The notes under the pieces are model-generated. The model was not told where the DNA came from and did no database searches. It saw only the letters and a program-made list of their open reading frames with translations. A DNA stretch of 64,000 bases from the NCBI GenBank assembly GCA_903813345.2, contig CAIIXF020000003.1, positions 4,735,815-4,799,814 on the forward strand. Direction: 5' to 3'. This DNA is from Owenia fusiformis (lineage: Eukaryota; Annelida; Polychaeta; Sabellida; Oweniidae). The translations under genes were made by a program, and so were the position numbers. This document shows, piece by piece, positions 9,140-43,557 of this stretch (the first letter of the stretch is position 1; each line of letters begins with the position of its first letter).

Positions 9140-9765
9140 GTTGTTAGTACGAACAGCTGAGAACGGTGCCTTGAACAGACATGGTATTAATTGTTGAAAA
9201 CGGTCCCTTAAACACCCAGAGTATAATTGTTATGAGTACGATTAGCTGGGAACGGTGCCCACCAAGGGTATATTCGTTGTTTTATACGATTAGCCAAGAC
9301 TGGTGCCTTAAACACCCAGAGTATAATTGTTGTGAGTACGATTAGCTGGGAACGGTGCCCACCAAGGGTATATTCGTTGTTTTATACGATTAGCCGAGAC
9401 TAGTGCCTTAAACACCCAGAGTATAATTGTTGTGAGTACGATTAGCTGGGAACGGTGCCCACCAAGGGTATATTCGTTGTTTTATACGATTAGCCGAGAC
9501 AAGTGCCTTAAACACCCAGAGTATAATTGTTATGAGTACGATTAGCTGGGAACGGTGCCCACCAAGGGTATATTCGTTGTTTTATACGATTAGCCGAGAC
9601 AAGTGCCTTAAACACCCAGAGTATAATTGTTATGAGTACGATTAGCTGGGAACGGTGCCCACCAAGGGTATATTCGTTGTTTTATACGATTAGCCGAGAC
9701 TGGTGCCTTAAACACCCAGAGTATAATTGTTGTGAGTACGATTAGCTGAGAACGGTGCTTTAAAC
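9140..9765. repeat. Tandem repeat, exact 100-bp dimeric unit, ~6 copies
   Basis: AACACCCAGAGTATAATTGT recurs at 9211, 9311, 9411, 9511, 9611 and 9711, so the period is exactly 100. Each unit is two related halves of about 50 bp, one around 'GTACGATTAGCTGGGAACGG' and one around 'TATACGATTAGCCGAGAC'. Copies differ by only a few bases, which indicates recent amplification or homogenisation. No coding frame. Confidence 0.95.
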
Positions 9766-12180: not shown

Positions 12181-13555
12181 AAAATATACAACTGAAATAT
12201 CTGATTAAATGTAGATGTTTACATTAACAAATTCATGAGAGAATGAGGAAAAAATTGTGATTTGTTTTCTGTAAGTTACTCCTTTTCGTTGCACCTTTAA
12301 AATCTCAATTTAAGATGACAATTAATATCAGAATATACACGTAATGCCTTCATCATAATTAACTTCATGATTTGATAAACTTTTTAAAACAATTGATAAG
12401 AAACTCACTGGCGTAACTAGGTCATTTTGGTAGTGCACGCCACGCCAACTTTGTGTGAGGGTAGCGTAACACGATTTTGATGGTACAGGGCATTAAATAA
12501 TCTCAGTCTTAGAGTCACATTGTTATTTTCAGATAGTCGATGATAAATCGTGAATTACATGTAAAAATCCAATCTAAAGAATGGCGACACGGAATATATT
12601 GGCAAAACGGTAACTTTTAAGATTAGTTTTAACACATATTTCTGGTGGATCAATCGCTTCTGAGAAAAGAGCATTTTGTTGCGTCAAATAACACCAGTAA
12701 GATAACAGTGGAAAATGGTATCTGTCAAGAAAGGTATACGACCCTGGAAACGTACATATTGTATATGGCCGCTCGAAACGTACATGGTATACGACTGCTC
12801 GAAACGTACATGGTATAGAGTATAAGACACTCCCACTTAAAGTACATGCCCCCTCAGTCAATAACTCTGCACCTCGTTTAATTATTATTAAGTATGCAAA
12901 CGTTTGAAGAAAAGCTCATTGGTTGTAATAGTATTGTCACTCGACTAGTTTTATTTGTTATGCAATAAATATTTATGTGTTTCAAAGCTGTCCAAAAATA
13001 ATCATTTTCTCCGAGTTTATAAAAACCCTACAATGTCAAGCTAAACATTTTGTCTAAACATAGGTCTCGGAAAGATTTTTAAGGCAGTACTATAAATCAA
13101 TAACCTGTTATATTTACCAAAGAGTGATGTTTCTAATATACAACATAATATAAAATGTAAGAAAATGCGAACTTTTACGCATTTGAAGTAGTTACCATAG
13201 CAACCAGTAACAGGATAAGTACAACTTTGCACGAGGGTAGTGAATAACATTTTTTAGGTATATCCTGTAAATGTAAGCTAATATGGTTGATGAAAAAGGG
13301 AGTTAGAAACATGATATGTTGAGATGCGTTGCTATTGCAACACATTTCTTGACTCATGCATATGAGAGTAGTAGCTGTGCATTTCAAAGATTGTAAGAAA
13401 GGGAATTTTGACAGCTTTTAAACTCCCTGTCACCAGTCTACATGAGGATTAACGATTATCCATATACATCTTTTGATATACTGTAATTCTAATAAACTGA
13501 TAAAATAAAAAAAATAGATAAAAAAGATAAAATAAGAAATTTTCAAATGTCTTAC
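12181..13555. other. Stretch without recognised gene; probable SLC6 intron 1
   Basis: No second SLC6 exon is visible here or elsewhere below 13556. Short minus-strand frames at 12574, 13041 and 13175 show no domain. The donor of the SLC6 exon at its right edge makes this region intronic on the minus strand. Confidence 0.5.
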
Positions 13556-13925
13556 CCCCTCCATTCTTGTAGCATAGATATGGAAATCTCCACACGTTAG
13601 CGAGATCAACTGCAAATCCAATGATAGATAGTAAAAAGTCAATTTTCTTGTCCCAAGTTTCACGGTCAGGATCAAGATCAGCTTCACCGCTATGTATGAG
13701 TGGCTTAAACGTCTCTGTTTTAGCGTCAGTAGTACTGCGGCCATTCGGACTCACAATTACTGGACTGTGTCCACATTCTTCATTGACACCATTACTGAGA
13801 AGTTTATCACATTGTCTGTTACAAGTCACACAAAGTGCAATGGTGTGATTATTTTCCATCACACCATTTGTATTCTGCTGGTTCTCCAACAGGCAAACTT
13901 CGACATCGCCATACGTTCTATCCAT
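13556..13925 (-). CDS. First coding exon of a DAT/NET-like monoamine transporter (SLC6 family)
   Basis: Encodes the N-terminal part of a sodium/chloride-coupled neurotransmitter transporter. Residues 1-88 are a hydrophilic cytoplasmic tail. Residues about 89-123 read [13 protein letters not shown], then [21 protein letters not shown]: transmembrane segment 1, whose unwound part helps bind Na+ and substrate. Asp107 within FAVDLANVW is the aspartate characteristic of monoamine carriers. [15 protein letters not shown] is closer to vertebrate dopamine/noradrenaline transporters than to serotonin transporters (which have DLGNVW). An in-frame TAA lies just upstream of the ATG. The exon ends with GT-AAG (minus, 13555-13551) in phase 1 inside the third glycine of NGGG, as expected before AFL. 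The usual Gly after RETW is Asp here. The remaining exons are not found, so intron 1 probably exceeds 13 kb. Family assignment is strong; the substrate is inferred. Confidence 0.9.
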
Positions 13926-14129
13926 TTTTAAATTATGTTATTCGACACATGTGTGCATATTTGCTCCTTCAATTAGAAGCATTTTCTCAAATTCAATATT
14001 GAAATCTCGTATTGGACAATTATTATAGTGTTTTTGATTTGATAAGTTATAAGCCAGAACGTGGTCCGCATAATTAAGTGTGCATTTTTTGTTTAAAGAT
14101 TGAAAGTATTTGTGTAATTATTGGGGATT

Positions 14130-17764: not shown

Positions 17765-19080
17765 CAATTAAACGATACACTTGCCTTGAATGCAAGTCGA
17801 TCGCCCTCTTACTATAACAAATGATTCACCATACTCTACTTAACGATACACTTGCCTTGAATGCAAATCCATCGCCCTCTTACTATAACAAATGATTCAC
17901 CATACTATACTTAACGATACACTTACCCTGAATGCAAATCCATCGCCCTCTTACTATAACAAATGATTCACCATACTATACTTAACGATACACTAACCCT
18001 GAATGCAAATCCATCGCCCTCTTACTATAACAAATGATTCACCATACCATACTTAACGATACACTTGCCTTGAATGCAAATCGATCGCCCTCTTACTATA
18101 ACAAATGATTCACCATACTATACTTAACGATACACTTACCCTGAATGCAAATCCATCGCCCTCTTACTATAACAAATGATTCATCATACTATACTTAACG
18201 ATACATTTACCCTGAATGCAAATCCATCGCCCTCTTACTACAACAAATGATTCATCATACTATACTTAACGATACACTTACCCTGAATGCAAATCCATCG
18301 CCCTCTTACTATAACAAATGATTCATCATACTATACTTAACGATACACTTACTCTGAATGCAAATCCATCGCCCTCTTACTATAACAAATGATTCATCAT
18401 GCTATACTTAACGATACACTTACCCTGAATGCAAATCCATCGCCCTCTTACTATAACAAATGATTCACCATACTCTATACTTAACGATACACTAACCCTG
18501 AATGCAAATCCATCGCCCTCTTACTATAACAAATGATTCACCATACTATACTTAACGATACACTTACCCTGAATGCAAATCCATCGCCCTCTTACTATAA
18601 CAAATGATTCACCATACTATACTTAACGATACACAAACCCTGAATGCAAATCCATCGCCCTCTTACTATAACAAATGATTCACCATACTATACTTAACGA
18701 TATACTTGCCTTGAATGCAAATCCATCGCCCTCTCGCTATAACAAATGATTCACCATACTATACTTAACGATACACTTACCCTGAATGCAAATCCATCGC
18801 CCTCTTACTATAACAAATGATTCACCATACTATACTTAACGATACACTTGCCTTGAATGCAAATCGATCGCTCTCTCACTATAACAAATGATTCACCATA
18901 CTATACTTAACGATACACTTACCCTGAATGCAAATCCATCGCCCTCTTACTATAACAAATGATTCACCATACTATACTTAACGATACACTTGCCTTGAAT
19001 GCAAATCCATCGCCCTCTTACTATAACAAATGATTCACCAAACTATACTTAACGATACACTAACACTGAATCCAAATCCA
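17765..19080. repeat. 71-bp satellite array, ~18 copies, octamer-bearing
   Basis: The consensus runs AACGATACACTTACCCTGAA, TGCAAATCCATCGCCCTCTT, ACTATAACAAATGATTCACC, ATACTATACTT. Unit starts at 17771, 17842 and 17913 show an exact 71-bp period. Nearly every unit holds ATGCAAAT, the consensus octamer bound by POU-domain factors; the first has ATGCAAGT. Sub-variants (TTGCCTTG against TTACCCTG, CACCATAC against CATCATAC) are interspersed, as expected from unequal exchange. No open frame. Confidence 0.95.
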
Positions 19081-19330
19081 TAATCCCCTCACAATATCAT
19101 GATTTCAAGTTCTTACCACACTTGAACGATACACCTGAATCCAAATCCAAAGCCCTCTTACTTAAACAAATGATTTCAAGTTCTTATTATACTTAAACAA
19201 TACACTTTAACACGAATCCAAAGCCATAGCCCTCTCACTATAAAAATCATTTCAGGTTCTCATCATACTTAAACGATATACTTTACCACGAATACATATA
19301 CATCGTCCCCTCACTTGAACAATAGTTTTC
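19081..19330. repeat. Degenerate edge of the 71-bp satellite
   Basis: Three or four diverged units keep 'ACGATACAC', 'AATCCAAA' and 'CCCTCTTACT'-like segments with longer, irregular spacing (about 65-75 bp). This is the usual decayed border of a tandem array. Confidence 0.7.
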
Positions 19331-22300
19331 ATGTTTCGATTTCAAATAAAGATTCATGGACTTTCGAATGTTAACGAATATAAGATGTTCATGTCAATCG
19401 TATCTTGATTGGCTTATGTAATCTGAATTTATCTATGGTTTAAGGAGTGTGATATAGGCCGTGTCCTGGCGAAGGGTAGATAACACTCGTGAAGTTAAGT
19501 TTGTTCATAAACATTTATAGGTTTTCAATTGGTAATTACGAGGGTGACAAAGTATTTTTAAAAGACTTAAAGTGTTCCTCGGAGCCAACTTAAAATGTCG
19601 GACCCACTTTAACTGTCACATAAAACACGTAAAAACAAAATATTTCTTTTTATAATTACTTCAACATTGTTCCTGCAGGAATATGATACATTTAGCAGTA
19701 CTGAGGGATTCATGCTTTATCTTCGTATATCCACGCTGGCTCCAAGGTTGTTATTACGCCTTATCTCAATTATTTCGTGGGGTCTTTAATCACGTGCCAC
19801 CGATCTTCGACATTTGAGAAGCCCTCGACCTAGGAATGAAGATCACACAATGCATCAGAGCCAGTCATCGACTGAATTTCATAATCAACTTCTAAGATAC
19901 TCTCCGAGGGACCTTTTAGTGTTGAGCGACATTGAAAAGGAAAGAGGAATGGCCTTCTTCTTGTTGGTAATAGAATCCTTACTCAAGGTTCGATGTACTC
20001 TTGCATAAACTATGAACATGTTATGACACCGCGGCTGGGTTGTAGACAATAGCAGAAACACACAATTAGTAGTATAACAACCAAGACTATGTATTTATTG
20101 TGTGTCCTAAAATGTTTCATAGCTCAAAAACATTGTATGCGCCGACACCCCCCCCCCCCCTAGGCACAACTTAAATAAGAAATATAATTTTCACACACCA
20201 AGGAAATCGTGTTAAATTTAATATAAGCATGTGCGAGTCTGAATGATTGATGAATCGCCTCATTGCAAACGCTACAAACTACAAAGAGTATTCAAAAGTT
20301 GCTTCGAAAACCTGATGAATCAGATAGCTGCCAATAGTAAATATATTGTTAATCTTAATTTCCAATAAATGTTGCACATAAACATAAGACACATAGTTGA
20401 AATGTTTTAAACTAAAACTAAACATGTTAATCTTCAGTTACACCCTACACGATTTGTTGAGAATGTTCGAAGATCTAATAAGATAAGACATGATATTCGT
20501 ACCTTTTGTGCCGACCACGCCTGAACCATATCCTCTTCACCCTCTAAACGAATTGTAGTTAAGAACGCATCGTAAAGACATATTAACTAACACTATTTGA
20601 CAATACATAGCTCTAACGTAACCAAATAACGTGACAACCATGACACGCAGCGCATTTACTATAAGTACGCTATCGGTACAAATTTGAAATCGCCAATATA
20701 ATTAAGACGTCTATAAAGATCTCGATCTTCCGTTTAACATGTATTTCGACATAATTTATAATAATTTTTATATATCCTTCTTGCTATCATATAAGGCAAT
20801 TATTCGAACTGAATTTCACGAAATATCCTCTATGGTTATTCAATTCACAGCCCTTCCAAATAGCTCTCAATTGAATAAAAACACCCTAAAAGGCGTGTTC
20901 AACGTTTAAACGAGGAACGAAACGAAATGGCCATGTAGTATGTAAAAGTATATATCTTTTTAACTGTTCCATCAATGTTTATGATATTTTCAGGATAATA
21001 CCCTATGTCATGGATCATCAATTCTATGCATAAATATTTACAAATAACGAACAGCGTATGACGTCACAATAGCTATTGTCGCAATCGTAATTGTGAGTGA
21101 CTCGTGTTCAACTCTGACTTATTCAGCCTGCGTATAGTACTTAAATGTAGATTTTGTGAGTTATATAGCAGTTTGTCATACAGTTGTTAACTTGTTAGAT
21201 CCGGAAAAGTTTCACGAACATACTGAAACTATATATACTTATCAGTGATTCAGATGTAAACGTATCAGCCACGATGGATTTTGTACGAATATTAGGAGTG
21301 AAACCTCGTCAAAATTACGTTATTTTTTACCACGGTAGATATGTTCTAAGCCATCTAAGTCTTTTAAATTGCAATGAATCATCTCAAATTCTTTATGGTC
21401 AAAAATAAAGAAGATGTTTGTTCTACAAAAAAAGTATATTTGATGACCTGGTGGCCATATAAACCTTGTAAATTCTATAAAATATTGAAAAATGTCCAAG
21501 TGAAGCCTCCGTGATAAAAATCCCCGTTAAAATCAATTAGGTATTTTCAATCTATGCGAGTGTGAGTATTTTAATATTTTGAGTCCTAAAAAATATTTTT
21601 CTCATCTGCGCATCAGGTGATTATAATGGATTAAAAAATTAGAGACTCTTTTTTAGTTTTTCACCTTTTAAAATGAATGATACCAGAGTCTGAACTAAAT
21701 GTGCATAGACCGTTTTGACGTCATTTTACACACAAAATGGGGACTTTGTGTCCCCTTTCATCAGAATTAGCGAGGACAGATTTTATTGAAATAATTTGAT
21801 AGCTTTCTTATTTGCCTGCGCATGTCCCATACATTACAGTGGTACCAAATGATAGGGTAAACCATACTTCTTCATGAACATATACCGTATTCTTTGAGTC
21901 TTAAAGAATAGAGACATTTCCGCGCTATAGGTTATAATACGCGAGAAAACGTAAAAAGCGCGCGATTGATGAGTCCCGCATTAAAAGTTAACAGAACAAA
22001 TTCTCTACACATCATAACTTTCAATCATGATGAATTCTCATTTGAAATAAAGATGCACATGTCATTTTGATGTAATGATTATCTATTGATATTATTAATG
22101 ATTATATCTTGTAGGATTTGCATATAAATTCATCAAAAATGGAAGATTAGTACAAAGTTTTCAATTTTATAGTTCAGAATATTTGTCTTGGTTTCCGTGT
22201 TTATTCAATTTTAAATCGATGTTTTGATTGAAGTTGCTTGCAATTGGTTTGTTTTGAAATATCCTTTTCATCGATTCATTCCTTAGATCGAATGTATGTA

Positions 22301-23625
22301 ATAATAATGTAATGTGTCATTTTCATAATTTTATGTTCATGCTTCAGTGAATTTCGAAGGAATAATGACGTCGTCGAATGTTCGTCAAATTGCGAGAATA
22401 TTTTTCATAACGTCACATTTCATTGTTTCCTGTGAAACGGGAGTGTGCACCAATAGCGTACTTATAGTAATTGTAACGATTTAACGCAATATGACACAAA
22501 GAGAGTTGAGGTTAGATTAACGCTTTGCGATATGCAACTTTGTTTCCATAAAGATTTTCTCGAAATTTGCCATAAAGATCACCGATCAAAGGATTCAGAC
22601 ATCATGATAAACCATGACATCTCATTTCTTGAGGTGAAACTGAAATTGTAGACTCATTTAAAAGATAGAATGCCATTTGTCCTGCAAGAATATAGACATA
22701 GCGCACCGCCATCTTTCTTTCAACCCGGAGTGGAATATGCTTATTTTGTAGAAATGAATGATGTTTCGCGTCTCATAGTACACAAGTAATATGTATAGGA
22801 ATGAGCGCCAAAATAACCTAGAATGACAGCCATCATGGTACACCCAAGGTATCTGGCAGATCAAAATTTAACAGAAACATTTTTGAATAAACACCATGAA
22901 AATGAAGTCGAATTTAAATGTCTACTGTATATTGCCCAAACTCAAATTTTATCTCACCCATTCAATTTTCCTTGATTAATTGTGAATAGAATTCAAGGAA
23001 TGGTAGTCTACAGGGCCCTAATACATGCACATAAATAAAGTAATCATGATCAGCACAAAAAGACTCTCTACAGTTACTCCCATCCCCCCTCCATTCCCTT
23101 TACTTTCCCTCCGTCCACTGCACATGTATAATTTAGATTATTTCTTACAACATGTTATTAGAAATTTAAAAAAACGCAAGAAGATATACATTTTGAGATG
23201 ATAATGTCATCTAGTAGTATTTAAAACATGTCATGTGGGCCTCCATTGATTGATTTATAGCAAAGAATTAACTTTCGCTCGTTGGTGACGTTGCGCCTTT
23301 TTTGGTAGATCTCACATCCTAGAACGTAATCAGTTTAGAGTCATAGAAAACCGTTCAAAATTTACCATACCGTACACCTATATATACTAGCACAGAATAC
23401 AACAGCCCCACGCTGACCAGTGCCTGAGTCTTCGACAGCAGACAACCCACGTGACCATCATTTCAACACACTTGATATTTATGAATGTACGAAAGCAACG
23501 ATACAGTCGTCCCAAAAAGACTTTTATGATTCATAAAATCTTGAAAAATGTGAAAAAATAGAAAAAATAAAAATAGAAAAATGGACTAGGTATAGGATAA
23601 ACAACTTGTGTACGGTCAGTTTTGA
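19331..23625. other. 4.3 kb stretch without recognised gene
   Basis: Contains a C-run near 20148 and short frames at 19814 and 22658, with no domains. 'TGACGTCA' occurs near 21059 but is a common palindrome. I see no supported exon, RNA gene or named repeat. Confidence 0.4.
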
Positions 23626-23718
23626 TATGGGGTTTATCCATTGTGAGATATACACATCTACGTTCGGTCACTACGGTCACTCAGGTAGATGTACATACTC
23701 CCTCTGGATAAACCCCAT
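23626..23718. repeat. Small foldback element
   Basis: TATGGGGTTTATCC at the left is the inverse of GGATAAACCCCAT at 23706-23718. The arms extend about 33 bp with mismatches (ACACATCTAC against GTAGATGTAC) around a loop of about 23 bp. The right arm continues as TTCAAAACCTCCCA, also present at the right arm of the foldback near 31300, so the two belong to one family. Confidence 0.65.
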
Positions 23719-24165
23719 TTTCAAAACCTCCCAGTCGAATAATGGGGGTCGATTTATTACAAGATTACGCACAAGTTCTTTTAAAACGTTAAACTTAATC
23801 TCCCTAATTACACAGAGGTAGCGCCCCGAGTATCAATGGATGTGCAGTTTTGAAAAGCAGAGCTCAACTAAAAATATATTTTTCATTTCGAACCGTAGTC
23901 TTAAAATCCCTGCCCTAATGGATATACAAATACTTAAATAACCTTTGATACGGAGGGTTGACTGGCTCCGGAGAAGACTCCAGTTGATCTCATGATGTTC
24001 CCAGTTACAAGAAATCCTATTGTTATGAAATCTTAAGATGACCTCGTAGTACGAGTACGAAATGCTCGTTTAGTATTCTTGGCGAAATGTCAACGTCTGA
24101 TCAACTCACCGACTAAATGTTCTTGGCATTCGGTACCTCTGTAACATTTCTGAATCACTGGGTGC

Positions 24166-24200
24166 ACAGGATGGGCCAAAAAAATTGAAACATTTTTTTA
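24166..24200 (+). repeat. Tc1/mariner-like terminal fragment
   Basis: ACAGGATGGGCCAAAAAAAT resembles mariner outer ends. No transposase frame follows before the two-gene transposon that begins about 400 bp further on. Confidence 0.4.
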
Positions 24201-24567
24201 TTTATTCAATTTTCTTTATTATTGCAGGTCAATCCACAAAAGTTCAGATAATTGTAAAATGATTATTTGTGTAACTTTTAAAGATAAAAATATAATTATT
24301 TTTGGCTTGTCATGGTCAAGATCTGTATACAGCGTGTGTCTAGGACATCACTGCTGAAAATTCAGTATATTTCAGACCATACAATATAATAAGAAAAACT
24401 CCAAAATGAATCGTTGGGGCCTCAACCCTACCCCGAATAATGGCTAAGACCTGAACTTACTTTTGTCAAAATACTGGAGCCTGAAAAATCACTCACCTAG
24501 ATATCGACGAAAGAAGTTTCAGTTTCGTTCGACTGCGAGAGCAAAATAGAGTCTTCCGATAAATCCC

Positions 24568-24615
24568 GACACCTATCGGGATGCGCAGTCGTCTTTTCGC
24601 GCATCTACGTCATAC
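24568..24615 (+). repeat. Left inverted terminal block of the two-gene transposon
   Basis: GACACCTATCGG, then 27 bp, then ACGTCATACT. The right end has the same two blocks inverted with 26 bp between them. Outward of the first block both ends keep CGAT-A-TCC and AATAGA, so the true tip lies somewhat outside. Confidence 0.75.
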
Positions 24616-25198
24616 TTTGATAGGAAGAAATGGCTACATTATACCAATATAAAATTGCCGTTTTTAACTTGGAATAAAATACCGTATTGGGTAAGATATC
24701 ACGTTTTAAATACCCTGTAGTACGACATAATCATGTAATATTTCACCTGTTAGAAGATAATAACTCCAGAGAATCGATTGAGAGAAAGATCTGTATTTCT
24801 ATTTTTCGAAAACAATAACAAAAAATAGTAAAATCTGTAAAACCTACTTTCCATTCCCTTCTTATTATGTAGCAAAACTGATATTTTACATTAATATTGA
24901 TTCAATATTTATGTATTTTTATCGTTTGATTCGAAAAATATGGTTGTCATTGTCCTATATTTATCAGAGCTTTCAAAATTAGTACTTCTTTGCCGAGTCG
25001 TGAGTCGACGCCATTTTTACATTGTAGCCATATTGATACAAACATGTACATTTGATACAGGTCGGCTACAATGAATCCCGACAACATTGCTACAAAGTAA
25101 ACACTCTCAGTCCTACTAGTTCACCCTGGTTACAACATACAACATATGTCTGTTTGTTTTCAGCTCAACTACATGTCCTGTACATGTCCTGAGAGACC

Positions 25199-27314
25199 AT
25201 GGACAGCAATATTGAAATCCTTGTAAAAGCTACAAACCCAAGTACTGTACTGGAAGGGAAGAATGTCAAAATCAAAAAGGATCGCAGAAATTGCTGTGTG
25301 CCACATTGTACAAAGACTGGGACAAGGGTGGAAAATGGAAGAAAGGTCACCTTTCACAGGTATTTAAAATTTCACAAACTATAATACTGATTAAATGCAG
25401 TTTATCATACATGTACATTGCATTGTCAATGTAGAGAGTGATATTTTTACCATTTGTTTTTTATTTTTATAGTATTCACAATCTGTACATTAGCCTATTG
25501 TAATTTATTTGTAGAATGTTCTCATACATGTACATGTACCTTATGATTCTTTCTAGAAATATTTATGTATTATATAATTACTTTTATTGACTGATTGATG
25601 TCACAATGTAAACTTACAAATATATTGTTCCATTTTTTTTATTTCCAGCTTTCCCAGTGATCCCAAGCGTAGACAACAATGGGTGGTCAAAATCAAACGC
25701 GACATAAACAACACATTCAAGATATCAGCTGGAACAGTGGTGTGTTCACTCCATTTCAAAGATGAGGATTATCGATATACCGGTGGATACTCCAACAGAT
25801 GTTACTTAAAAGAAGATGCAGTCCCCTCAGTCTTTGATTGCTGGCTAAACTTGGACAAGAAATATGTATATACCCCAGCTAAAGAGAGACGCCCCAACAA
25901 GTGGATGTCTAGGAAGGTATCGGCACCAGGGCAAGTGAACTGTGCCCTAGAATCTGATGCTCTATCAGAAAATGACACAGATACAGACTCAATCTCTAGT
26001 TCAGATTCATTTAGTGAAACAACAGCTCCCATCCATGATGATGTATCAAATACATCAACTGCTCAGACCACACCTGTCAAAAACCAAGTTGATGAAACAA
26101 GATTGAACATTGAGTTTAGCAAACTCAAATTGGAATCTAGTCTGCTTAATCGAACACTTGAAGCCATTAAAATCAAGCTTGAGGAAAATAAATCGGTGAA
26201 TAAACACTTATCAGCTACTATCAAATTGTTGCAAGACCGAACTGCAGAGTTAGAAGATGACTTACTCGAGCGTGATGAAACAATAAAAAAGCTTCAAAAT
26301 GAACTTGCCAAATCAAAAAGTGAACTATCCACTGCTCATGAAACGATATCCAAAGATGTTTTTTCAATTGACAACTTGCCACCACGTGATGTTACCTTCT
26401 ACACTGGATTACCTGAGATCAAGGACTTTGACCGCTTGTTAGTAGGACTTGAAACTGGTAGTTCTGGAGAAAATATTGTCTACAGTACCAGTGTCAACAA
26501 TGCTGGTGTCAAGTCAAATTCATCGCACGTGAAACGGGGAAGACCGAGACTGCTGACTCCGCGTCAAGAGTTCTTCATGTTTCTCTGCAGAGTTAGGCTT
26601 GGTCTCTTTGAGCAAGACCTGGCGTATCGATTCAAGGTGTCGAAGTCAACAGTTAGTGCAATACTTATATCATGGACTGTATATTTGTATGAGCGACTTG
26701 GCCAAATCAACATATGGCCAAGCAGACAGCTTATTGATGAGAATATGCCTGAAAATTTTAAAGCAGCCTATCCCAATACTCGTGTGATCATCGACTGCAC
26801 TGAAATTCAAATGGAAACCCCATCTTCACTTGTATTGCAATCCAAATCATACTCCACATACAAGAGTGGCAATACCTTGAAATCGTTGATAGGTATAACT
26901 CCGGGTGGACATTTGTCGTTCATATCATCACTCTACTTAGGTAGCATCAGTGATCGGGAAATTACCATGAGAAGTGGATTATTGAATCTGCCATTTGATG
27001 AAGGTGATAGTGTGATGGCAGACAAGGGGTTTGATATCCAAGATCTGTTGGACCCAATGGGAGTTAAACTAAATCTTCCTGCTTATGTCGGTAAGCGTGA
27101 CCAAATGACAAAAGGAGAGGTTCGTGAAACCCAGCAAATCGCAAGTTTAAGAATCCACATTGAGCGGTGGAACAATAAACTCAAGAATTTTCACATTTGG
27201 GATAGACCTGCATTGCTCTCAACTGCTGGATCAGTGAATCTTACTTGGACATTGTGTGGTTTACTCACCCTCTTCCAGGACCCCATTCTGTCAACTGAAT
27301 CATATGATTCTTAA
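25199..27314 (+). CDS. THAP-domain DDE transposase, two exons (608 aa spliced)
   Basis: Exon 1 is 25199-25359; the intron 25360-25648 has GT...CAG ends; exon 2 is 25649-27314. The junction restores an AGC codon in frame. An in-frame TGA precedes the ATG (context GACCATGG). An acceptor-like TTTTCAG at 25157-25163 suggests a 5' UTR intron. Residues 33-116 are a complete THAP zinc finger: Cys33, Cys37, Trp65, Cys86, His89 and a closing AVPSVF, which would bind the transposon ends. Residues about 208-290 form a Lys/Glu/Leu-rich coiled coil. RPRLLTPRQEFFMFLCRVR begins an HTH_Tnp_4-type helix-turn-helix. The DDE_Tnp_4 catalytic triad is visible as Asp436 (VIIDCTE), Asp512 (VMADKGFD) and Glu559 (RIHIERWNNKLK). 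No stop or frameshift is present. AATAAA lies just after the stop. Confidence 0.92.
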
Positions 27315-28079
27315 AATAAATGATCTATGACAAACTGACTCATCCAATGGAATGTGAACAATTAACTGTATTGATTGAATAATCAATGAATTTTTCCATT
27401 TGAAGGTAAATGATGAAATTAAATGTTATATCAGTATATAGGTTTGATGTGTTAACTGAACATTAATTTATACTACCAAAATTTCACACTGCCTATGATT
27501 GAAGACTATGAACATGTATAAATCTAACTTTCTAGCACTTTGTCAAATAACGGGACTTTTTATCATTTGGGTACTACTTCTACTGAACAAAACCACATCG
27601 ATGTATTTAATATGTACAATTATTTATTTACATAACATGTATAGAATACAATGGAGTATAATAGTTTATACTATATATGAATGTTATACACTGACCTTAT
27701 ATGGACAATTTGTATGTATACACTAGATCAGGTTCTAGCATAGTGTACAGACATATGATACAGCAGGTTGTTTACAATGTATCCAGAAGAGAACAACTTA
27801 TAAATGCTAATGTTATATATTTTACTTCTACATATACTTGCTACATTGTAGCTTTGTAAAGAATTTCAGTTTTAAAAATCAATATGTAGCCTACCTGCTA
27901 CATTGTGGATAATTTTACTACAAACTATTTGCAGTATCACATATGTAAACACACAGTCTCAGACATCTACATTTAAGTATGTTTTGAGTTTTTATTAGTT
28001 TCTTAAAGGACTAGCCTACATAAAACTTACAAAATGATCATTCAGTAAAATGAAATAAAATACACTATTTATATCAAAA
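27315..28079. other. Shared 3' intergenic region of the two transposon genes
   Basis: AT-rich spacer of about 765 bp between the convergent transposase and YqaJ genes. It holds several CTACATTGTA-like motifs (27840-27905). A 75-codon frame at 27499 is hydrophobic, has no known motif and overlaps nothing conserved. Confidence 0.5.
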
Positions 28080-31000
28080 TTATGCTGTTTGTGTAATGTA
28101 CACAAGGAAATGATCTTTATAAAAAGATCCAAGTTTAACCATCATTTCATGAAAGAAAACTTCATCAAATTGAATTCTTTCAATGAGTAAACCCCTTTTG
28201 GTGTATACTACAAAATCACACATTGTCAATCCACACAAGCCCAACTGACCCTGTACTTGGTAATAGTAGCTATGGTTTCTATCTAATCTGGGTTTGTTGT
28301 TAATGCGATGCATGTAAAAGTTGTCTTGCTGAAGGAGTTCCTCTGGTGTTAATTCCTTGAATGAATGAGGACACTTCACTTCAAGCAAGATACTGCTATT
28401 GAGTCCACATTTATGGTCAATAACTTTTCTGTCTGGGGTACAACCAGCCCAGGGCATGCCTGGATTTACAACAAACCCAGATTGACACACAGTGATATGG
28501 TTTCCCGAATTTCTCATATAGGTTTGATATTTTTTGACACATTCGGTCTCATTATCTCGACCATATTTGATAGCTTGGACACTATCTAAATTCTTGGGAT
28601 TGGCAAGATTTTCAACAAATTTGGTTGTAACAGTTTTTCTCTTACATATAAGGCCAAAATTACTCGCAGTCAGTCTTGATTTTCTTGCCTCAACCCATTC
28701 TTCATTTTCACTTTGATTTCTAGTTTTTTCTTCAAGTTTAGTACAATCTTGCTTTGATAATTTTAAATTTTCAACAAAGGGGCTACCAGAGCCAAAATGA
28801 ATATCCAATGGTTCTAAAGTACAAATTGGTAAATCAGGAAAAGAAGTAGAGGTGTTATACATATTTTCATTGAGAACTCTGCAATCAAAATTGCTTACAA
28901 CATCAAAATTGCCTTCAGTTATTGAACACTGATAACTAAGGACACTTCCAAGTACTGATTGTGTACCCAAAATGGTATCAACATATGAATTCCTCTCACA
29001 ATAAACATGTTTTACACCATAGTCTCTTGACACATCTGCCTTGAATGAGTTGACAAGAGGTTCCACAAAATCATTATTTTGCACGGAGGGTGCCCGAGCC
29101 TCATATAATGCACTTTTAATTCCCTTTGAGGTTGATCCATACTTGGGATTGAAAACAGTGTATCCCATGATGGGCTCAGATTGTAATCCATCATTTCTGA
29201 ATCGCTTGCTTGGATTATTCCATTCCTGTTTGGCATCAGTACATGTGCCTTTGTCACTAAACTGTTCAAGTTTGGCATGCACAACATGATTACATAGGTA
29301 CAACAAAGCAAATACATGGTTGCAAACACCTGATGCACCTGCAATACACGAACACTTTGCAGCTTTCACCAAACCATTTGGAGTAATTTCAACACACAGT
29401 TGATGTGGAGTCTCATTCTTTTTCATGGATTTGTAACAGTGAGCCTGCACTTCACAATTTCCTGAATTATTGGTCCTTGAGAGTACTTTGTGTATATATC
29501 CTTCATGAAAAAAACTGTAACCTCTTGAGTTGGGCCTATCAACACTAAGTGTTTTTCCTGATTTGTCTATATGATGAGTAATTGATGAAATAGAAAATGT
29601 TTTCGGAATATGAGTTGTAGATTTGGAGAATGGAGTTTGATTGTCAGGAGATGGTGTAGAAGAGGTGTCACTTTGAAGTTGCATCTTGCATTTGTCACAT
29701 TTTGCCATTTTTGTCCTCGTATAGCTTTTGAATGGATCTGGATCAATCAGTTTCAGCTCTCTATGCCTGCTCTTGGTGACCCTAAAATAATAATAATAAC
29801 AATATGTTAAATTCATCTTTAAAACTACAAAATGCAATGATGCAAATCAATTACATTTTGTGGTTTATACAAAATAGCAATTTAATTTGAAGTTCTGTCA
29901 CAATCTTCTTTTTATGCTCAGTGCTACGGCCAAAGCAAAATGACGAACCAAAGAAATATAGTGGATCATAATTATCAACAACTTTCATACAATTATATTT
30001 ATGTGTTGATAAATGTGATATCTGTGCATTAATAGCCACTGATATTTTTGATATTATTGATTGAAATCAGTCTGATATTTTTCGGAAGTTTTACTATATA
30101 TTTAATATATCGTGTAATTTCGCTCAACAAGTTTTGTCAGAACATAACAAATGATTATAGCAGATAGTCAAAGGATAAACCCAATATCAGATAATTTCTC
30201 AAGACATCATTTTATCGCCATGTAGATATCATCTGTCAATGTGACGATAAGAATGATATCACCCAAGATAAAAAGATCTGATATTCTGTATTATCCTATG
30301 ACAAGTGAGGTTTCAGGTACATAACAGCGGGATATAAAATCGATATCTTGGAAGAGCGGGACATATATATCTCCTGCTGTATATCTCCCGCACCAATATT
30401 CCCGGGAATAACTGGTAACTTTTCCATTTTAACAGATTTTTTAATAATCTGAAATATGTTCTTTTAAATTATTGACTCATTCAATATACATGTTTCATAT
30501 ACGACAAATAAAATCAACATTAGTTTAAAAAGTTAAAATCTTTTCAATTCAGTTGAGGGAATAATCAATGTCTCATAGATAAAGGTCACTTGTCATAGGA
30601 TAAATTAGTTATGTGATGCTCGGTATTGGATATGGGGTAGTGGTGTCAATTAACCGCTTGGGCATTAACCGGTTAACCGGGGGTTTTTACCGGTTAAAGT
30701 CGGTTAACCGGCGGGAAATTTGAACTGATAATTTCAAATGAAATCTTCATCTTCGATCTTGAAAGTTGAAAAAATTGGAAAAATGATATATCGGCGTTTA
30801 TTTTTTACGTTCGTCAAGCTTTACTCTATTCTATGTAAGTAAGTGCGGGAAAGCAATGTGGCAGGGATTCAAGTTGCTGATTGGATGTTTGTAAGGAATT
30901 ATCGGACCTATCACATGTATGAGTAGCTCACATGAGACTGACGCTTGAAAAACAAACAGATTAAAATGCAAAGTAAGCGCGGGAAAGCAATGTGGCAGAG

Positions 31001-32527
31001 ATTAAAGTTGCTGATTGGATGTTTGTAAGGAGTTATCGGACTTATGACATGTATGAGTAGCTAACGTGAAACTGACACCATAAAACCAAACGGATTAGCA
31101 TGCAAAATAAGCGCGGAAAATAACAGAATTATACACGGTCAACTAACCGCTCATAAAAACACAGACCGGTCAAGGCATTATCGGCGGTTGACCGGTTAAC
31201 CAGTTAATACTTGACACCCCTAATATGGGGTATATCCCTCGGGAAATATGATATCTTACCTTGTGACCTCCGGGCCCTCAGTAAGATATCAATATTTCCC
31301 TCAGGATATACCCCATATCCAAAACCTCCCATAACATAGCCCTCATTTATCCAATGGTTACAAGGATATATATCGAATATCAGGTGAAGATTTATTTGAT
31401 ATGTGGATCAAGATTTCGCTGGGATAAACGGACAATCCTATGGTTTTTAGAAAATATCAATTATATCCCCTGCGCTCTCTCTTAAAGATATCAATATCCA
31501 CTCATGGATATAAATGATATTTTTTCAAAACCATAGGATATTCCTATATTATCCTACACTTAGTGTACAAAATGTATAACATTCAAAAATAAATGTGATG
31601 TCTTTTGGCAAATGCATAACTGGAGGATATCACCACGATAGACTCCGGAAAACCAATATCTGAACATGAGGAGGATATCGTGACAATATACTCCTGAAAA
31701 CCAATATGCAGAGGATATTGTGCCGATATACTCCGCTTGTTGATTTCTTGTCAAATTCAACTATTTCACAAGAAATTTTCAATGATATTATATGTTTAGT
31801 ACACTACTAGTAAGTGTAGGATAATAAGACCATCCTATGATTTTTGGAATATCATTATTATCTTGGTGATATTGATATATGCACTCCTTCGCATCGCGCT
31901 CTCGTGCAGATATCATATTCACCTCATAGATAAAAATGATATTCCTCAAAATTATAGGATATCCTGAAAATATATATACCTTTGAATGAGTTTTGATCGC
32001 TGCTCATTTGACTTGAAGGCTAGGTTACGAGAACGCAACCACATTTTGAGTCTTTTCACACTCCAGTCTTTCTTGTGGGCAGGTAATTCAGCTCCTGGAA
32101 TATCTGCTATTGTCATCTGAAATAAAATTACAATTTGTTTCAAATATCATTATCATATATCAATACAGAATCTCAATTAAATAAAGTAACTTTGAACCCA
32201 TGGATATCCATTTAGAACATGACAGATAAAATATAAGGCTAGCCTTTTACAGATTTCAAAATGTATTAGACTTGCATGTATATCATAATAAAGAAAAATA
32301 CATATCATATGTTGTAAGCGAATCGAAAACCAACAATTTCAGAGAACTTAATTTCAACAACTCAAATATATAAAATTGAATGTAACATTTACCTCTGAGC
32401 ATGATTGACAAGGGATCAGTGAAACTGCCTCTTGATCTCTCCCTGGCGATTGAAGTGGAGTCTCAGTCTGACTCTTTCCAACCCTGTTGAAACTACTGGT
32501 AGCTGCAGCACTGGCCATATGTGCCAT
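28080..32527 (-). CDS. SWIM zinc-finger and YqaJ-nuclease protein of the transposon, three exons (657 aa spliced)
   Basis: Minus-strand exons: 32527-32393, 32116-31980 and 29781-28080. All four intron borders are GT/AG, the phases fit and 1974 coding bases give 657 residues. An in-frame TAG precedes the ATG by six codons. Cys40-x2-Cys43 sits near the N-terminus. Residues 56-91 (DWSVKRLKMWLRSRNLAF) look like a SAP-type DNA-binding helix pair. Cys119-x2-Cys122 follows. A SWIM finger C-x-C-x7-C-x-H is at Cys234, Cys236, Cys244 and His246. The C-terminal YqaJ/lambda-exonuclease fold shows RKSRLTAS (457-464), TPD (Asp541), LLEVKCP (Glu558, Lys560) and YYYQVQGQL (Gln599, Gln601), the expected metal-binding and catalytic positions. 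It probably processes DNA ends during transposition; that role is inferred. Intron 2 (2.2 kb) is full of later insertions yet leaves the frame intact. Confidence 0.9.
30171..30301. repeat. Foldback element in intron 2 of the YqaJ gene
   Basis: AGGATAAACCCAATATCAG at the left is the rough inverse of TGATATTCTGTATTATCCTA at the right; inner segments with ATATCA/TGATAT also pair. Arms are imperfect. Confidence 0.5.
30594..31362. repeat. Older foldback element split by a hAT-type MITE
   Basis: The left arm is 30594-30637 plus 31231-31262, interrupted by the MITE at 30638-31222. The right arm is 31284-31362. With the insertion ignored, the arms pair over about 75 bp, e.g. GGATATGGGGTATATCC with GGATATACCCCATATCC and GATATCTTAC with GTAAGATATC. 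The right flank CAAAACCTCCCATAACAT matches the family at 23626. Confidence 0.7.
30638..31222. mobile_element. 585-bp hAT-type MITE with 8-bp target duplication
   Basis: The ends are inverted: TAGTGGTGTCAATTAACCG on the left and TTGACACCCCTA on the right. ATATGGGG flanks both sides exactly (30630-30637 and 31223-31230); an 8-bp duplication and TAG-type ends are hAT hallmarks. The interior has a 134-bp tandem duplication (GCGGGAAAGCAATGTGGCAG at 30845 and 30979) and AACCGGTTAACCG palindromes. No frame, so non-autonomous. It landed inside an older foldback within the YqaJ gene intron. Confidence 0.9.
31436..31539. repeat. Foldback element in intron 2 of the YqaJ gene
   Basis: TCCTATGGTTTTTAGAAAAT on the left pairs with the inverse of ATTTTTTCAAAACCATAGGA on the right; arms extend about 33 bp to ATATCC/GGATAT. 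The interior holds GCGCTCTCTC, also seen in the next foldback. Confidence 0.65.
31832..31960. repeat. Foldback element 20 bp from a splice donor
   Basis: ATCCTATGATTTTTGGAATA pairs with the inverse of the right arm ending ATTATAGGAT. It ends about 20 bp from the donor of exon 2 of the YqaJ gene (31979-31978). Flanking AGTGTAGGATAATA (31812) and its inverse near 31551 suggest a larger nested inverted repeat enclosing 31550-31825. Confidence 0.65.
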
Positions 32528-33049
32528 ATCTGTATATGTAGACTACTCCACACACTGATAGCGACAGAGCTCAGTCTGAAACAGAAATATACTATGTGAA
32601 AAGCAGATCAGGAAAATAGGTTAACCATGTTAACTGCATTGAACTGGGCTTACACCTGGATGTTTCCTAGGCTGGGTCCCCAGTCCATGATTTGGCTTTT
32701 CAAAGCCCCGTTTCTGCATCAAATGTACTATTTTCTGACACTAGACGAAAGATATGACATCAACGAACGTCACGGGACAGATTTATTAACCCCTAAACCT
32801 CATAATTTGAAGATTTCAACACCAGAGATTATTTTTGAAAAAGAATTGATAAAAAAATCTGAATTTTTTTAGACCCGTTTTTACGTCTTTACTCTAATAT
32901 TAGACATATTTATTCCTACATTTAATGCTTTACACCCGTCTTTATCGAAAGGATTACAATATTTATCGGCACATACCTTATTTATTGTGAAATCAAGTGA
33001 TATTTATCGAGAATTTTAATGGCGTCGTACACTAGTCAGAGCAAATCCC

Positions 33050-33099
33050 TTAGTATGACGTCATCCCAGAAATAGTTCCGGGAGTGGCCGATAGGTGTC
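33050..33099 (-). repeat. Right inverted terminal block of the two-gene transposon
   Basis: Read on the minus strand from 33099: GACACCTATCGG, 26 bp, then ACGTCATACT, mirroring the left end. It lies about 570 bp upstream of the YqaJ start codon; an acceptor-like TTTCTGTTTCAG near 32581 suggests a 5' UTR intron in between. Confidence 0.75.
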
Positions 33100-33118
33100 A
33101 GGAATAATCGTTTTCGTC

Positions 33119-34575
33119 TATTGAAGCTGTGCTAAACGGTTTTCGTGATCTGCCTTTAGACCTTTTGCCACCTATCGTAAGTTAATCGAATTAAAATGAA
33201 ACGGTTTCGAACCAAAGAGAAAATGTGCACGAAAATTATAAACTCCGCTTGACATAATCTTTGTCACTCTATCGTCTTCTTGATGAGACACATCGGAACT
33301 TGGGATTAATAGCCATTCAACCAAGCCACACAAATATGTATTTTAGTTGTTCAACATGTTCAGTTGTGTTAATTTTTCCGGGCTCTCGACCTTTCAAATG
33401 GCCAAAATTCAAGACAATGACCAATAATTCCAGTTTTCTATCTGAAGTGTCCAATTCATGTGGAGAGGAGCAGATTTTGGGCACAAAAATAATAAATAAA
33501 AGAAAAACCTTCAAGATCGTACGAGGTTTGTTCAGTTACATATTTCTTCAACTAACGAGAATGGCCAGAATAGTGGAACCAAGTCTTAAAAATTCTTAAA
33601 AGATACTTCTGATGAAATGCTCATTGGTTTCTTTACTTCTTGACTACATCATCTAGCTATCAATCCTTCTCTTTTACATTTCGTTTTACATTTGTAGGAG
33701 GAGAAGAAGTAATATGAAATACGATTGGCCGAAATCAAGACTCATACTATTCTGTTATTTAAATATAAACATAAAAATACGAATACAACTAACTTTTGAT
33801 CGTACGTTTATATTTCACATCATTAAGAAGTAATTTTGTATATATATCCTCCATTTTAATGTTTGGAGGATACAAAAGATTGGACAGCCTAATCTAGACA
33901 ACTTGAATTCACGAGAGAAAAACCTACACTTAATCATATATCTCCATTGTCCGTAATACACCTTCTGGCATTTCACCAAATAATGTATCAATAGTGTATA
34001 TTAATATGGACAATGCGTTCGAGGATACAAATATTTGACAAATCGTATATACTCGTATAGTAAAACATACCTAATCATGTGACTAAGACCTATCAAACAT
34101 CCCGCTTTCAAGAGTTGGCCGCACAGACATTTTTTAAACATGCTAAAAAACAACACAATCGATACATTATAGGTTAAGAAATCCGTGTTTATATTTGCCG
34201 AATCAATAAAATATTTGTTAATTGTCAAAAAATGCATCATTAAAGCGATATTTAAAAAAAATATATAAGCAATATTCAAAACAGGTACCTTGTGGTAATG
34301 ATTACTCGAAGTCTGGTCAACAGAAAATAACACATTGCATCAACATATATGTCGCAGTCTCTAGTACAACAACGGATTTTTAAAATTATTTTTGTAAATT
34401 ATCGTAAATTGGCCCATTTACTCACGATGGGTATAATCAAAGGCTCTCTGCTGGAGGGGAGGGATAGATCTGCTAATGTCCAGACAGGTGCTGTTCGGCA
34501 ATCGTACGATCATCGTGCGATTCCCACCATGTATCAAATTGCTTTGTTTGCGGACGCTATATGATGTGTGAGCAT
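33119..34575. other. Stretch without recognised gene; includes one copy of a dispersed repeat
   Basis: 33540-33720 is an inverted, shortened copy of 39560-40000: both hold AGAATAGTGGAACCAA, AAAAGATACTTCTG, GGTTTCTTTAC and ATCAATCCTTCTCTTTTACA in the matching order. The 112-codon frame at 33261 overlaps it and has no known domain. The 110-codon minus frame at 34001 also shows none. Confidence 0.5.
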
Positions 34576-39000: not shown

Positions 39001-39500
39001 NNNNNNNNNNNNNNNNNNNNNNNNNNNNNNNNNNNNNNNNNNNNNNNNNNNNNNNNNNNNNNNNNNNNNNNNNNNNNNNNNNNNNNNNNNNNNNNNNNNN
39101 NNNNNNNNNNNNNNNNNNNNNNNNNNNNNNNNNNNNNNNNNNNNNNNNNNNNNNNNNNNNNNNNNNNNNNNNNNNNNNNNNNNNNNNNNNNNNNNNNNNN
39201 NNNNNNNNNNNNNNNNNNNNNNNNNNNNNNNNNNNNNNNNNNNNNNNNNNNNNNNNNNNNNNNNNNNNNNNNNNNNNNNNNNNNNNNNNNNNNNNNNNNN
39301 NNNNNNNNNNNNNNNNNNNNNNNNNNNNNNNNNNNNNNNNNNNNNNNNNNNNNNNNNNNNNNNNNNNNNNNNNNNNNNNNNNNNNNNNNNNNNNNNNNNN
39401 NNNNNNNNNNNNNNNNNNNNNNNNNNNNNNNNNNNNNNNNNNNNNNNNNNNNNNNNNNNNNNNNNNNNNNNNNNNNNNNNNNNNNNNNNNNNNNNNNNNN
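39001..39500. other. Assembly gap (500 N)
   Basis: Exactly 500 N, a conventional placeholder length; the real size is unknown. Any frame spanning it is meaningless. Confidence 0.99.
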
Positions 39501-39559: not shown

Positions 39560-40000
39560 CCTAATAATACATCTTCGCCTCCTACGAAGAAATGTAAAAG
39601 AGAAGGATTGATAAGGAGAGCTTTTAAGAAGTTTCTAACTTTTTTTTATTCTGTAAGTGATCATCATGGAATTTAGACATATTTTTTTAGAATGGATTTT
39701 TAGGTGGATTTTGACATCCTGAAATATTGTACCCGGTATTTGCATTATCAAAACGTTCGTTTCTACAACGTTTTCGTGAAGCCATGAAATTCCATTTTCT
39801 ATTTTTAACCATTACCTTTTGCTTAATTAAATAAAAAAACCTAGTACTGTACGAGCAAAATAAAATATGTCTAAGCTAGAAGATGAAGTAAAGTCTTAGT
39901 TTTCGTAAAGAAACCGATGCGCATTCCACCAGAAGTATCTTTTAAGATTTTTTTAGAATTGGTTCCACTATTCTGGTCATTCTAATTAGTTTTTTTGTTT
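39560..40000 (-). repeat. Dispersed repeat, longer inverted partner of 33540-33720
   Basis: The reverse complement repeats the segments of 33540-33720 in the same order, with about 290 bp of extra internal sequence (39610-39900). The pair is inverted around a 6 kb stretch that includes the gap. Confidence 0.6.
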
Positions 40001-41099: not shown

Positions 41100-43557
41100 C
41101 GTTTATGTGAACCTATACCCCAGCAGACCAATCCAACCCAGAAAACCTTATTGGAGTGCTGAGCTTCAATCATTATGGGATAAGGTTCAAAAGCTGAACA
41201 AACATGGATACAACGCAAAGATACAGCGAAAAGAAAATGTCTCAAAGCAACTTATTGTATTGAAAGGCGTTGTTTTGATAGGAGTCTAAGGAAAGCTAAG
41301 CGCCGATATCAGAAGCAAAAACAAGACCATCTATTTGATCTGTACAAATCATCCAGTTCACAGGACTTTTGGAAATACATAGGGAAAATAGGAATAGCCA
41401 ACGAGCGTACCAAAGATGTTCCATGGGCAATGAAAAATCAATCTGGTGAATTGGTGTATGATAAACAGATAGTTCTGAACCACTGGGCTGACACATATGA
41501 AAAATTATATTCATCCGCTCAGAATAATCCTATGTTTGACTCTGATCACTTAGAATATATAAAACAACAAGTGGCCAATATAGAAAGTAATGATACTGAC
41601 AATAATTTAGACATAAATAAAGACATTTCTTTTAGGAGGTTGTAGAGGCAGTCGGTAGGGCCAAAGTCCGTAAAGCTGTAGGAGTTGACTCTATACCAGC
41701 TGAGGCTTTGAAAAATCCACTTTGTATAACCATGTTACACAGAATTATGTTACTCTGTTTTAACTCTGGCACTGTGCCAAGTCAGTGGATGGAGGGTATT
41801 ATACACCCAATTATATAAAGATGGAGACCCATGTAATCCTCTGAACTATCGTGCCATCACATTGATATCCGTGCCTTGCAAGGTCTACACTGATATTTTG
41901 AACAAGCGCCTAACTCAATTCCTCGAGGACAATAACCTTATTCATGATGAACAAGGGGGCTTTCGCAAGGGACGTGGTTGTCAAGAACAAGTTCACAGTG
42001 TCTACTCAATCATCAATAATAGGAAACTTTCTAAGCTCGATACTTTTATTTGCTATATTGACGCAACTAAGGCATTCTCGAGTGTTAATCGAGACTGTCT
42101 ATGGTATAAACTCAATAAGATTGGCATCAAAGGCAAAATATTTAAAGCAGTTCAATCCCTATATGAAGATGTGACATGTAAAATCCGTATAAATGGTCTA
42201 CTATCTCCAAAAGTAAATGTAAGTAATAGCTGCCGGGAAGGCTGTCTGCTATCCCCGACATTATTTTCAGTGTATGTGAATGATCTAGTGTCCGACATTA
42301 ACAGTCTACAATGTGGAATACAAATGGAGGACGAGAACATTGGCATCCTTCTTTATGCTGATGACATAGCGCTTATTGCAAGCTCAACTGATAACTTACA
42401 ACAGATGTTAAACACTCTACATGAATGGTGCCGCAAATGGAGACTTCTAATTAACCCTCGAAAATCTAAAATAGTGCATTATCGCCCAAAATCACATCCT
42501 AGGTCAGACTTTGCTTTTAAATGTGGGGACTTTGATGTACAGACACTTATAAATATCTGGGGATCTGGCTTCAAGAGCACGTGGACTCAACACATTCTGC
42601 CAGAGAAATTGCAAAATCAGCAAATAGAGCCCTGAGTGTGATTATCAGCAAATACAAGCAAACTGGGGGTATGGAGTTCACAGTTTACAACAAGCTCTAT
42701 GACTCTTTAGTCCAGCCTATAGGGGGCCCCCTATACTAAACTATGGTTCATCTATATTTGGCCTCAACCAACATCAATGCCTGAACAATGTTCAAAATAA
42801 AGCTGGCAAGTTCTTTCTAGGTGTAAACAAACGCACTCAGTAATGAGGCTGTTAGAGGAGATCTCGGATGGGACACTCCACATTTAAAACAAAAGGTGGA
42901 ATGTGCTAGATTGTTCATTAAACTGAAGTCCATGAATCATAATAGGCTGAATTTTAAAATACATGAATGGTTCATTAAACGGAAAAGCAGTTGGGACTTT
43001 AAAGTTAATTCAATGTTAAATACATGTAATATAGATATCACTGGTCATACCAAGGACATTTTAAAACAGTTTACTTACTCTCTTCGAAATTCTGATAAAT
43101 TTATCCATAACATTGGGATGATAGAAATAATGAAATAAATGGCAATAAATTGAGGCAATACAGACTGTACAAATATGGTGTTTGCAAGGAAGGGTATTTG
43201 GCCCTACCTAAGCATCACCGTAGGTCACTTGCTAGATTCAGAACTGGTACTTTGCCCTTAGCAATTGAAACAGGGCGCTACACAGGTATACCATTACACG
43301 AAAGGAAATGCTTATTATGTGACATGAATTGTATTGAAGATGAAAAGCATTTCTTATTAGAATGTAGCCATTATGATGATCTAAGATGTAAATTTTATGA
43401 AAATGTTAAACAGAAATTGCCTTATTTAGATGTAACATCAGCCAATTCTACACTTCTTTTTGTCTCCATTATGAATTGTACTTTACTCCAAAGACCATTA
43501 GGAGCTTTAGTTTACAATATGTGCAATAAGATATCTCTTAATATTGATAGGCTATAA
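41100..43557 (+). pseudogene. Frameshifted LINE open reading frame with reverse transcriptase (CR1/jockey-like)
   Basis: Translated pieces in changing frames read as one polyprotein. There is a linker (RPIQPRKPYWSAELQSLWD at ~41126; KAKRRYQKQKQDHLFDLYKS at ~41297). The reverse-transcriptase palm spans ~41640-42560: NYRAITLISVPCKVYTDILN, IDATKAFSSVNRD (motif A, usual KAFD changed to KAFS), GCLLSPTLFSVYVNDL (motif B) and LLYADDIALIA (catalytic YADD). Thumb remnants follow. The 43150-43557 piece ends in a C2HC-like CLLCDMNCIEDEKHFLLECS, typical of CR1/jockey-type C-termini. Breaks include a stop near 41643, a frameshift near 41816, another near 42550 and several at 42635-43150. The endonuclease domain is missing at the 5' side. 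It is a dead copy. Confidence 0.88.

What the first reader, a model, noticed from the sequence alone, without database searches (positions are those of the whole stretch)
24550..33118. Apparently intact two-gene transposon pairing a THAP-DDE transposase with a SWIM/YqaJ nuclease
Both genes can be spliced in silico with consensus sites and no frame break (608 and 657 aa), all catalytic residues are in place (D436, D512, E559; D541, E558-x-K560), and inverted blocks flank them. In a window full of dead elements, this copy looks young and possibly autonomous. Why a DDE transposon carries a lambda-exonuclease-type nuclease is, to my knowledge, not understood.
Basis: partly seen in the sequence, partly recalled or inferred. 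Interest (0 to 1): 0.78.

Follow-up and report, generated by a model that had tools for sequence, protein, structure and literature searches.

The report
Intact-looking ISL2EU-type DNA transposon
This stretch looks like a jumping gene of a type already described in animals, carrying a cut-and-paste enzyme and a virus-like DNA-chewing enzyme that both look undamaged; what the second enzyme does for the jumping gene is still an open question.

Summary
Two spliced genes (608 and 657 aa, GT-AG introns) lie convergently at 25199-27314 (+) and 32527-28080 (-). The first matches THAP, HTH_Tnp_4 and DDE_Tnp_4; the second YqaJ and Viral_alk_exo. The named catalytic residues are present. SWIM rests on a motif only. 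A 20/23 inverted repeat (24557-24579 / 33088-33110) and a collinear inner 10-mer flank both genes; the two-block arrangement occurs in 0 of 150 shuffles and 0 of 170 control pairs, while the 23-nt block alone is weaker evidence.

This gene pair is the published coding content of the ISL2EU group (Han 2015, PMC4482050), so it is a new member of a known kind. Two ISL2EU marks were not cleanly met: the repeats do not start with GG and the AT target duplication is ambiguous. "Young and autonomous" is unproven: open frames limit unselected ageing to about 1.5-2% substitution, but selection would look the same, and intron 2 carries a nested MITE. No genome or second copy was available. That the nuclease resects transposition breaks is my inference; Han 2015 calls the extra ORF's function unknown.

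The parts
24557..24579 (+). left terminal inverted repeat (23 nt; outer boundary uncertain)
33088..33110 (-). right terminal inverted repeat (20/23 identical to left)
24607..24616 (+). left inner block ACGTCATACT, collinear with the right copy (spacer 27 vs 26 nt)
33052..33061 (-). right inner block ACGTCATACT
25199..25359 (+). transposase exon 1 (N-terminal part of THAP domain)
25649..27314 (+). transposase exon 2 (rest of THAP, HTH_Tnp_4, DDE_Tnp_4; stop included)
27315..27320 (+). AATAAA polyadenylation-like signal after the transposase stop
32393..32527 (-). nuclease exon 1
31980..32116 (-). nuclease exon 2 (weak Ish1 match spanning residues 62-92, below cut-off)
28080..29781 (-). nuclease exon 3 (SWIM-like motif and YqaJ domain; stop included)
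27991..27996 (-). AATAAA polyadenylation-like signal 86 nt after the nuclease stop
30638..31222 (.). 585-bp hAT-like MITE nested in nuclease intron 2, flanked by a perfect 8-bp duplication ATATGGGG (30630-30637 and 31223-31230)

Best explanation
It is a single, apparently uncorrupted copy of an ISL2EU-type DNA transposon (PHIS superfamily), about 8.55 kb between the inverted repeats, in an unidentified eukaryote that is probably an animal (inferred). Inferred working: the THAP zinc finger and HTH of the transposase bind the ends, and the DDE domain cuts the element out and joins it at an AT-rich target. The convergently transcribed YqaJ protein is a lambda-exonuclease-type enzyme that acts on the DNA ends made by transposition. 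I think the likeliest role (about 35%) is 5'-to-3' resection of the donor-site break, pushing repair towards homology-directed copying from the sister or homologue. Shown here: domains, catalytic residues, gene pairing, flanking inverted repeats. Inferred: cut-and-paste chemistry and everything about the nuclease's role. The confidence below is for the identity, not for the resection role.
For: Domain set of both proteins. Catalytic D, E-x-K and further invariant R, E and Q shared with 4 phage YqaJ exonucleases, fetched out of 34 matching phage records. Two-block flanking inverted repeat, 0 of 150 shuffles and 0 of 170 control pairs. Han 2015 describes ISL2EU as a DDE+HTH+THAP transposase ORF plus a YqaJ exonuclease ORF, found in animals only. 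For resection: SXT-Exo, of the lambda Exo/YqaJ family, is a processive 5'-to-3' dsDNA exonuclease preferring 5'-phosphorylated ends and is stimulated by annealing or ssDNA-binding proteins (PMC3118119, abstract and passages). 3 of the 4 phage loci fetched carry an annotated annealing-type protein near the exonuclease.
Against: One copy only, so the ends are not defined by comparison; the 23-nt repeat alone is matched by 25 of 2000 shuffles and 6 of 338 control pairs. The ends do not begin with GG and no clear A|AT|T duplication is seen. Length 8.55 kb against an average of about 4.84 kb, partly through inserts in a 2.2-kb intron. A third copy of the 9-mer core lies outside the right end, so the boundary may be wrong. 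For the resection role: no annealing-protein gene was seen between the repeats, and Han 2015 calls the extra ORFs' function unknown. PDB match to an exonuclease is weak, E 0.22.
Confidence: 0.88

Rival explanations
1. Rival for the role only: the YqaJ protein serves mainly as a DNA-binding and nuclear-import partner of the transposase, as the Myb-like second protein does in Harbinger; its nuclease activity is secondary.
For: In Harbinger the Myb-like protein is reported to interact with the transposase, allow nuclear import and bind the ends (PMC9179366 passage). ISL2EU has YqaJ in place of that second ORF. A SWIM-like motif and a weak Ish1 match precede the nuclease domain.
Against: Catalytic residues are conserved with phage exonucleases, which a mere adaptor would not need.
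Confidence: 0.3
2. The pair is retained by the host as a domesticated two-gene module and the transposon ends are relics.
For: Both frames are intact while intron 2 has taken a nested insertion. Ends are imperfect, 20/23. No other copy in the window.
Against: Flanking inverted repeats are still recognisable in collinear blocks. No orthologue or selection data. Recent insertion explains intact frames equally well.
Confidence: 0.08
3. Two unrelated neighbouring genes or separate remnants, with the inverted blocks a chance match.
For: The 23-nt block alone is reached by 25 of 2000 shuffles and 6 of 338 control pairs; the looser gapped score by 20 of 338 control pairs.
Against: The two-block arrangement is absent from 150 shuffles and 170 control pairs. 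The gene pair is the published ISL2EU pair.
Confidence: 0.04

Closest known systems
[quoted passage not shown]
   Same: One ORF with THAP, HTH and DDE; a second ORF with a YqaJ exonuclease domain; inverted repeat length within the 6-259 bp range (Han 2015; this element).
   Different: Longer (about 8.55 kb against an average of about 4.84 kb); no GG at the repeat starts; AT target duplication not clear.
PIF/Harbinger
   Same: Related DDE transposase and two-ORF plan.
   Different: Its second ORF is Myb/SANT, not YqaJ; target duplication TWA.
Phage YqaJ / lambda-type exonucleases (e.g. Vibrio phage pYD21-A; weakly PDB 3syy)
   Same: Nuclease core with conserved D, E-x-K, R, E, Q.
   Different: 27-30% identity over the aligned piece; the 4 phage genes fetched are about 206-292 aa and lack the long N-terminal part; 3 of these 4 loci have an annotated annealing-type protein nearby.

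Membership tests
ISL2EU | Transposase ORF with THAP, HTH and DDE domains | tested here: met
   all three above Pfam cut-off
ISL2EU | Second ORF with YqaJ exonuclease domain | tested here: met
   (44.8 bits, cut-off 22)
ISL2EU | Terminal inverted repeats enclosing both ORFs (6-259 bp) | tested here: met
   23 nt, 20/23, plus collinear inner 10-mer; one copy only, and the 23-nt block alone is matched by 25 of 2000 shuffles
ISL2EU | Repeats usually start with GG | tested here: not met
   sequence around 24557-24580 and 33087-33110. Han 2015 says 'usually', so I do not treat it as strictly defining; the true boundary is uncertain
ISL2EU | AT target-site duplication within A|AT|T | tested here: inconclusive
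   an AT/AT pair at 24559-24560 and 33107-33108 is compatible, but two bases with a movable boundary prove nothing, and the neighbours are CG, not A and T
ISL2EU | DDE domain falls in the ISL2EU clade of the PHIS tree | not testable with these tools
   no reference ISL2EU sequences at hand; scans of viral and genome contigs gave no relatives
PIF/Harbinger | Second ORF with Myb/SANT domain | tested here: not met
   no Myb/SANT match in the second protein at E<=1

The most novel reading that the evidence does not exclude
The transposon carries its own break-resecting exonuclease, so that excision is followed by homology-directed copying. A cut-and-paste element would then raise its copy number by an encoded, not borrowed, end-processing step.
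Probability: 0.25. Interest if true: 0.65.

Novelty: new member of a known kind. Interest (0 to 1): 0.3.

Why it matters
The group was already described by 2015, but Han 2015 still called the function of the second ORF unknown. A copy with both genes open, catalytic residues intact and recognisable ends would be a usable starting point for an excision/integration assay in cultured cells with and without the nuclease.

Tried and rejected
Other copies: tblastn of both proteins against the window found only their own exons plus one stray match at E 0.36; blastn of 24000-33600 against the window found only repeats of intron 2 (one related to 23625-23733, 75%) and a match outside the element, 33550-33600 to 39941-39991. 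The 15-nt core CCYGACACCTATCGG has no third site at 2 or fewer mismatches; one 3-mismatch site at 62730 is at chance level. Relatives: none confirmed in viral contigs or genome contigs; these are not eukaryote collections, so this says nothing about copy number. Genome: none held. Structure: AlphaFold2 on exon 3 alone, single sequence, mean pLDDT 31.8, not used. Exact boundary and target duplication: several shifts considered by eye on the sequence, none convincing; a third CACCTATCG outside the right end (33169-33177) leaves the boundary open. A long divergent inverted repeat was considered, because the looser alignment runs to 24816 / 32828, but such scores occur in 20 of 338 control pairs, so it is not claimed. 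The 100-nt-end test (0 of 2000) used ends chosen after seeing the match and is not relied on. The two-block criterion was also set from the observed match; control pairs overlap one another and the window is repeat-rich. Literature searches: 30 of 32 listed; 30 of 108 listed. No functional study of the ISL2EU nuclease showed in those listings, which cover only the held open-licence library. Recalled, from no call: that D541/E558/K560 match the metal-binding residues of lambda exonuclease; the hAT-like label of the nested MITE; that AAA_24 can mark Sak4-like proteins.

Full report
What is there. The window has 35% G+C and one 500-base run of N at 39001-39500; genes in it have introns, so it is eukaryotic. 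No genome is held for it. At 25199-27314 (+) two exons give a 608-aa protein. At 32527-28080 (-) three exons give a 657-aa protein. All three introns are GT-AG and the frames are uninterrupted. The genes are convergent. AATAAA signals lie right after the first stop and 86 nt after the second.

Proteins. The first has THAP (residues 32-116), HTH_Tnp_4 (356-405) and DDE_Tnp_4 (435-593), all above Pfam's cut-offs. Its 4 PDB matches by sequence (E<=0.1) are all THAP-protein chains. The second has YqaJ (452-608) and an overlapping Viral_alk_exo match (437-531); exon 3 also matches two PHROGs exonuclease families (1.6e-12 and 1.4e-11) and, weakly, one of unknown function (0.017). By tblastn, 34 phage records match the nuclease part, all under 60% identity; among the 20 listed the best E-value is 4e-11. 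The only PDB match of exon 3 (E<=1) is 3syy, 'Exonuclease', E 0.22. SWIM is a motif only: no Pfam hit, and a pattern of that kind occurs in 97 of 5000 shuffles. A weak Ish1 match (E 0.039, below cut-off, residues 62-92) is the only hint of a SAP-like part.

Ends. A 23-nt inverted repeat, 20/23 identical, brackets both genes at 24557-24579 and 33088-33110. Inside it, after spacers of 27 and 26 nt, both ends carry ACGTCATACT. Alone, the 23-nt block is reached by 25 of 2000 shuffles and 6 of 338 control pairs; a looser gapped score is reached by 5 of 2000 shuffles but 20 of 338 control pairs. The two blocks in register are found in 0 of 150 shuffles and 0 of 170 control pairs, by a criterion set from the observed match. 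I take the repeats as real, with the outer boundary uncertain. An AT/AT duplication (24559-24560, 33107-33108) is possible but not demonstrable from one copy. The 9-mer core CACCTATCG occurs three times in the window: in the two repeats and at 33169-33177, outside the right end (0 of 100 shuffles had three).

Nested insertions and age. Several of the longest inverted repeats listed lie in intron 2 of the nuclease gene (29782-31979). One nested element, 585 bp at 30638-31222, has TAG...CTA ends and a perfect 8-bp duplication ATATGGGG; the hAT-like label is from recalled features. With 3801 coding nucleotides, an unselected copy would have less than a 5% chance of staying open beyond about 1.5-2.1% substitution, or about 0.5-0.6% if one frameshifting indel per ten substitutions is assumed (the indel ratio is my assumption). 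So the copy was functional, or under selection, until recently. The nested insertion shows that it has not just arrived, unless it carried that insert with it. 'Young' and 'maintained' cannot be told apart here.

What it is. Han 2015 (PMC4482050; parts 1-3 of 4 of the text read) describes ISL2EU: most autonomous candidates have one ORF with DDE, HTH and THAP and another with a YqaJ exonuclease domain; AT target duplications in A|AT|T; repeats of 6-259 bp usually starting GG; average about 4840 bp; 25 families, 12 potentially active with both ORFs intact; all in animals. PMC9179366 (passages) describes the same pair and reports transcription of such elements in teleosts. Coding content matches. 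The GG start is not met, the target duplication is inconclusive and the DDE phylogeny could not be tested. PMC10225492 (passages) names THAP, YqaJ and HTH_Tnp_4 genes among dominant transposon-related gene families in scallops. PMC7826175 (one passage) counts YqaJ and herpesvirus alkaline exonuclease domains in a clam genome as endogenous viral elements; since the nuclease here matches both Pfam models, some of those may instead be ISL2EU second ORFs (my inference, not tested). I did not identify the organism here.

How it may work. Cut-and-paste by the DDE transposase follows from the superfamily. For the nuclease, SXT-Exo of the lambda Exo/YqaJ family is a processive 5'-to-3' exonuclease preferring 5'-phosphorylated dsDNA ends and is helped by annealing and ssDNA-binding proteins; genes of this family often lie near such genes in prokaryotic elements (PMC3118119, abstract and passages). 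Of the 4 fetched phage loci, 3 have an annotated annealing-type protein (Sak4-like, SAK-like, erf) nearby; the fourth shows an AAA_24 hypothetical protein. In the transposon no such gene was seen: apart from the main exon ORFs, no stop-to-stop ORF overlapping 23500-34500 exceeds 117 aa, although a spliced gene of short exons is not excluded. The nuclease would then have to use host annealing factors. I propose resection of the donor break (about 35%), with a Harbinger-like adaptor role as the main rival (about 30%). [quoted passage not shown]

Verdict. The finding is a new member of a known kind, of modest interest because the nuclease's role is an open, testable question.

Noticed in passing
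33169-33177: CACCTATCG, the core of the terminal repeat, recurs just outside the right end in the orientation of the left repeat; only three copies exist in the window, and 0 of 100 shuffles had three. It may mark an older or more distant end.
   Followed up: partly
41730-42632: Reverse transcriptase ORF (RVT_1, 1.1e-36); neighbouring ORFs 41184-41642 and 43111-43554 gave no Pfam match. Probably part of a broken non-LTR retrotransposon (inference).
   Followed up: partly
13452-13937 (-): Likely exon of a sodium:neurotransmitter symporter (SNF), 3.6e-19 to the first 48 positions of the profile, probably a host gene.
   Followed up: no
49680-50255 (-): C2H2 zinc finger ORF (zf-C2H2 2.5e-9).
   Followed up: no
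4445-7440; 9202-9758; 17771-19335; 51264-52243: Tandem-array-like stretches seen in the self-comparison, with steps of about 100, 71 and 162 bp in the last three.
   Followed up: no
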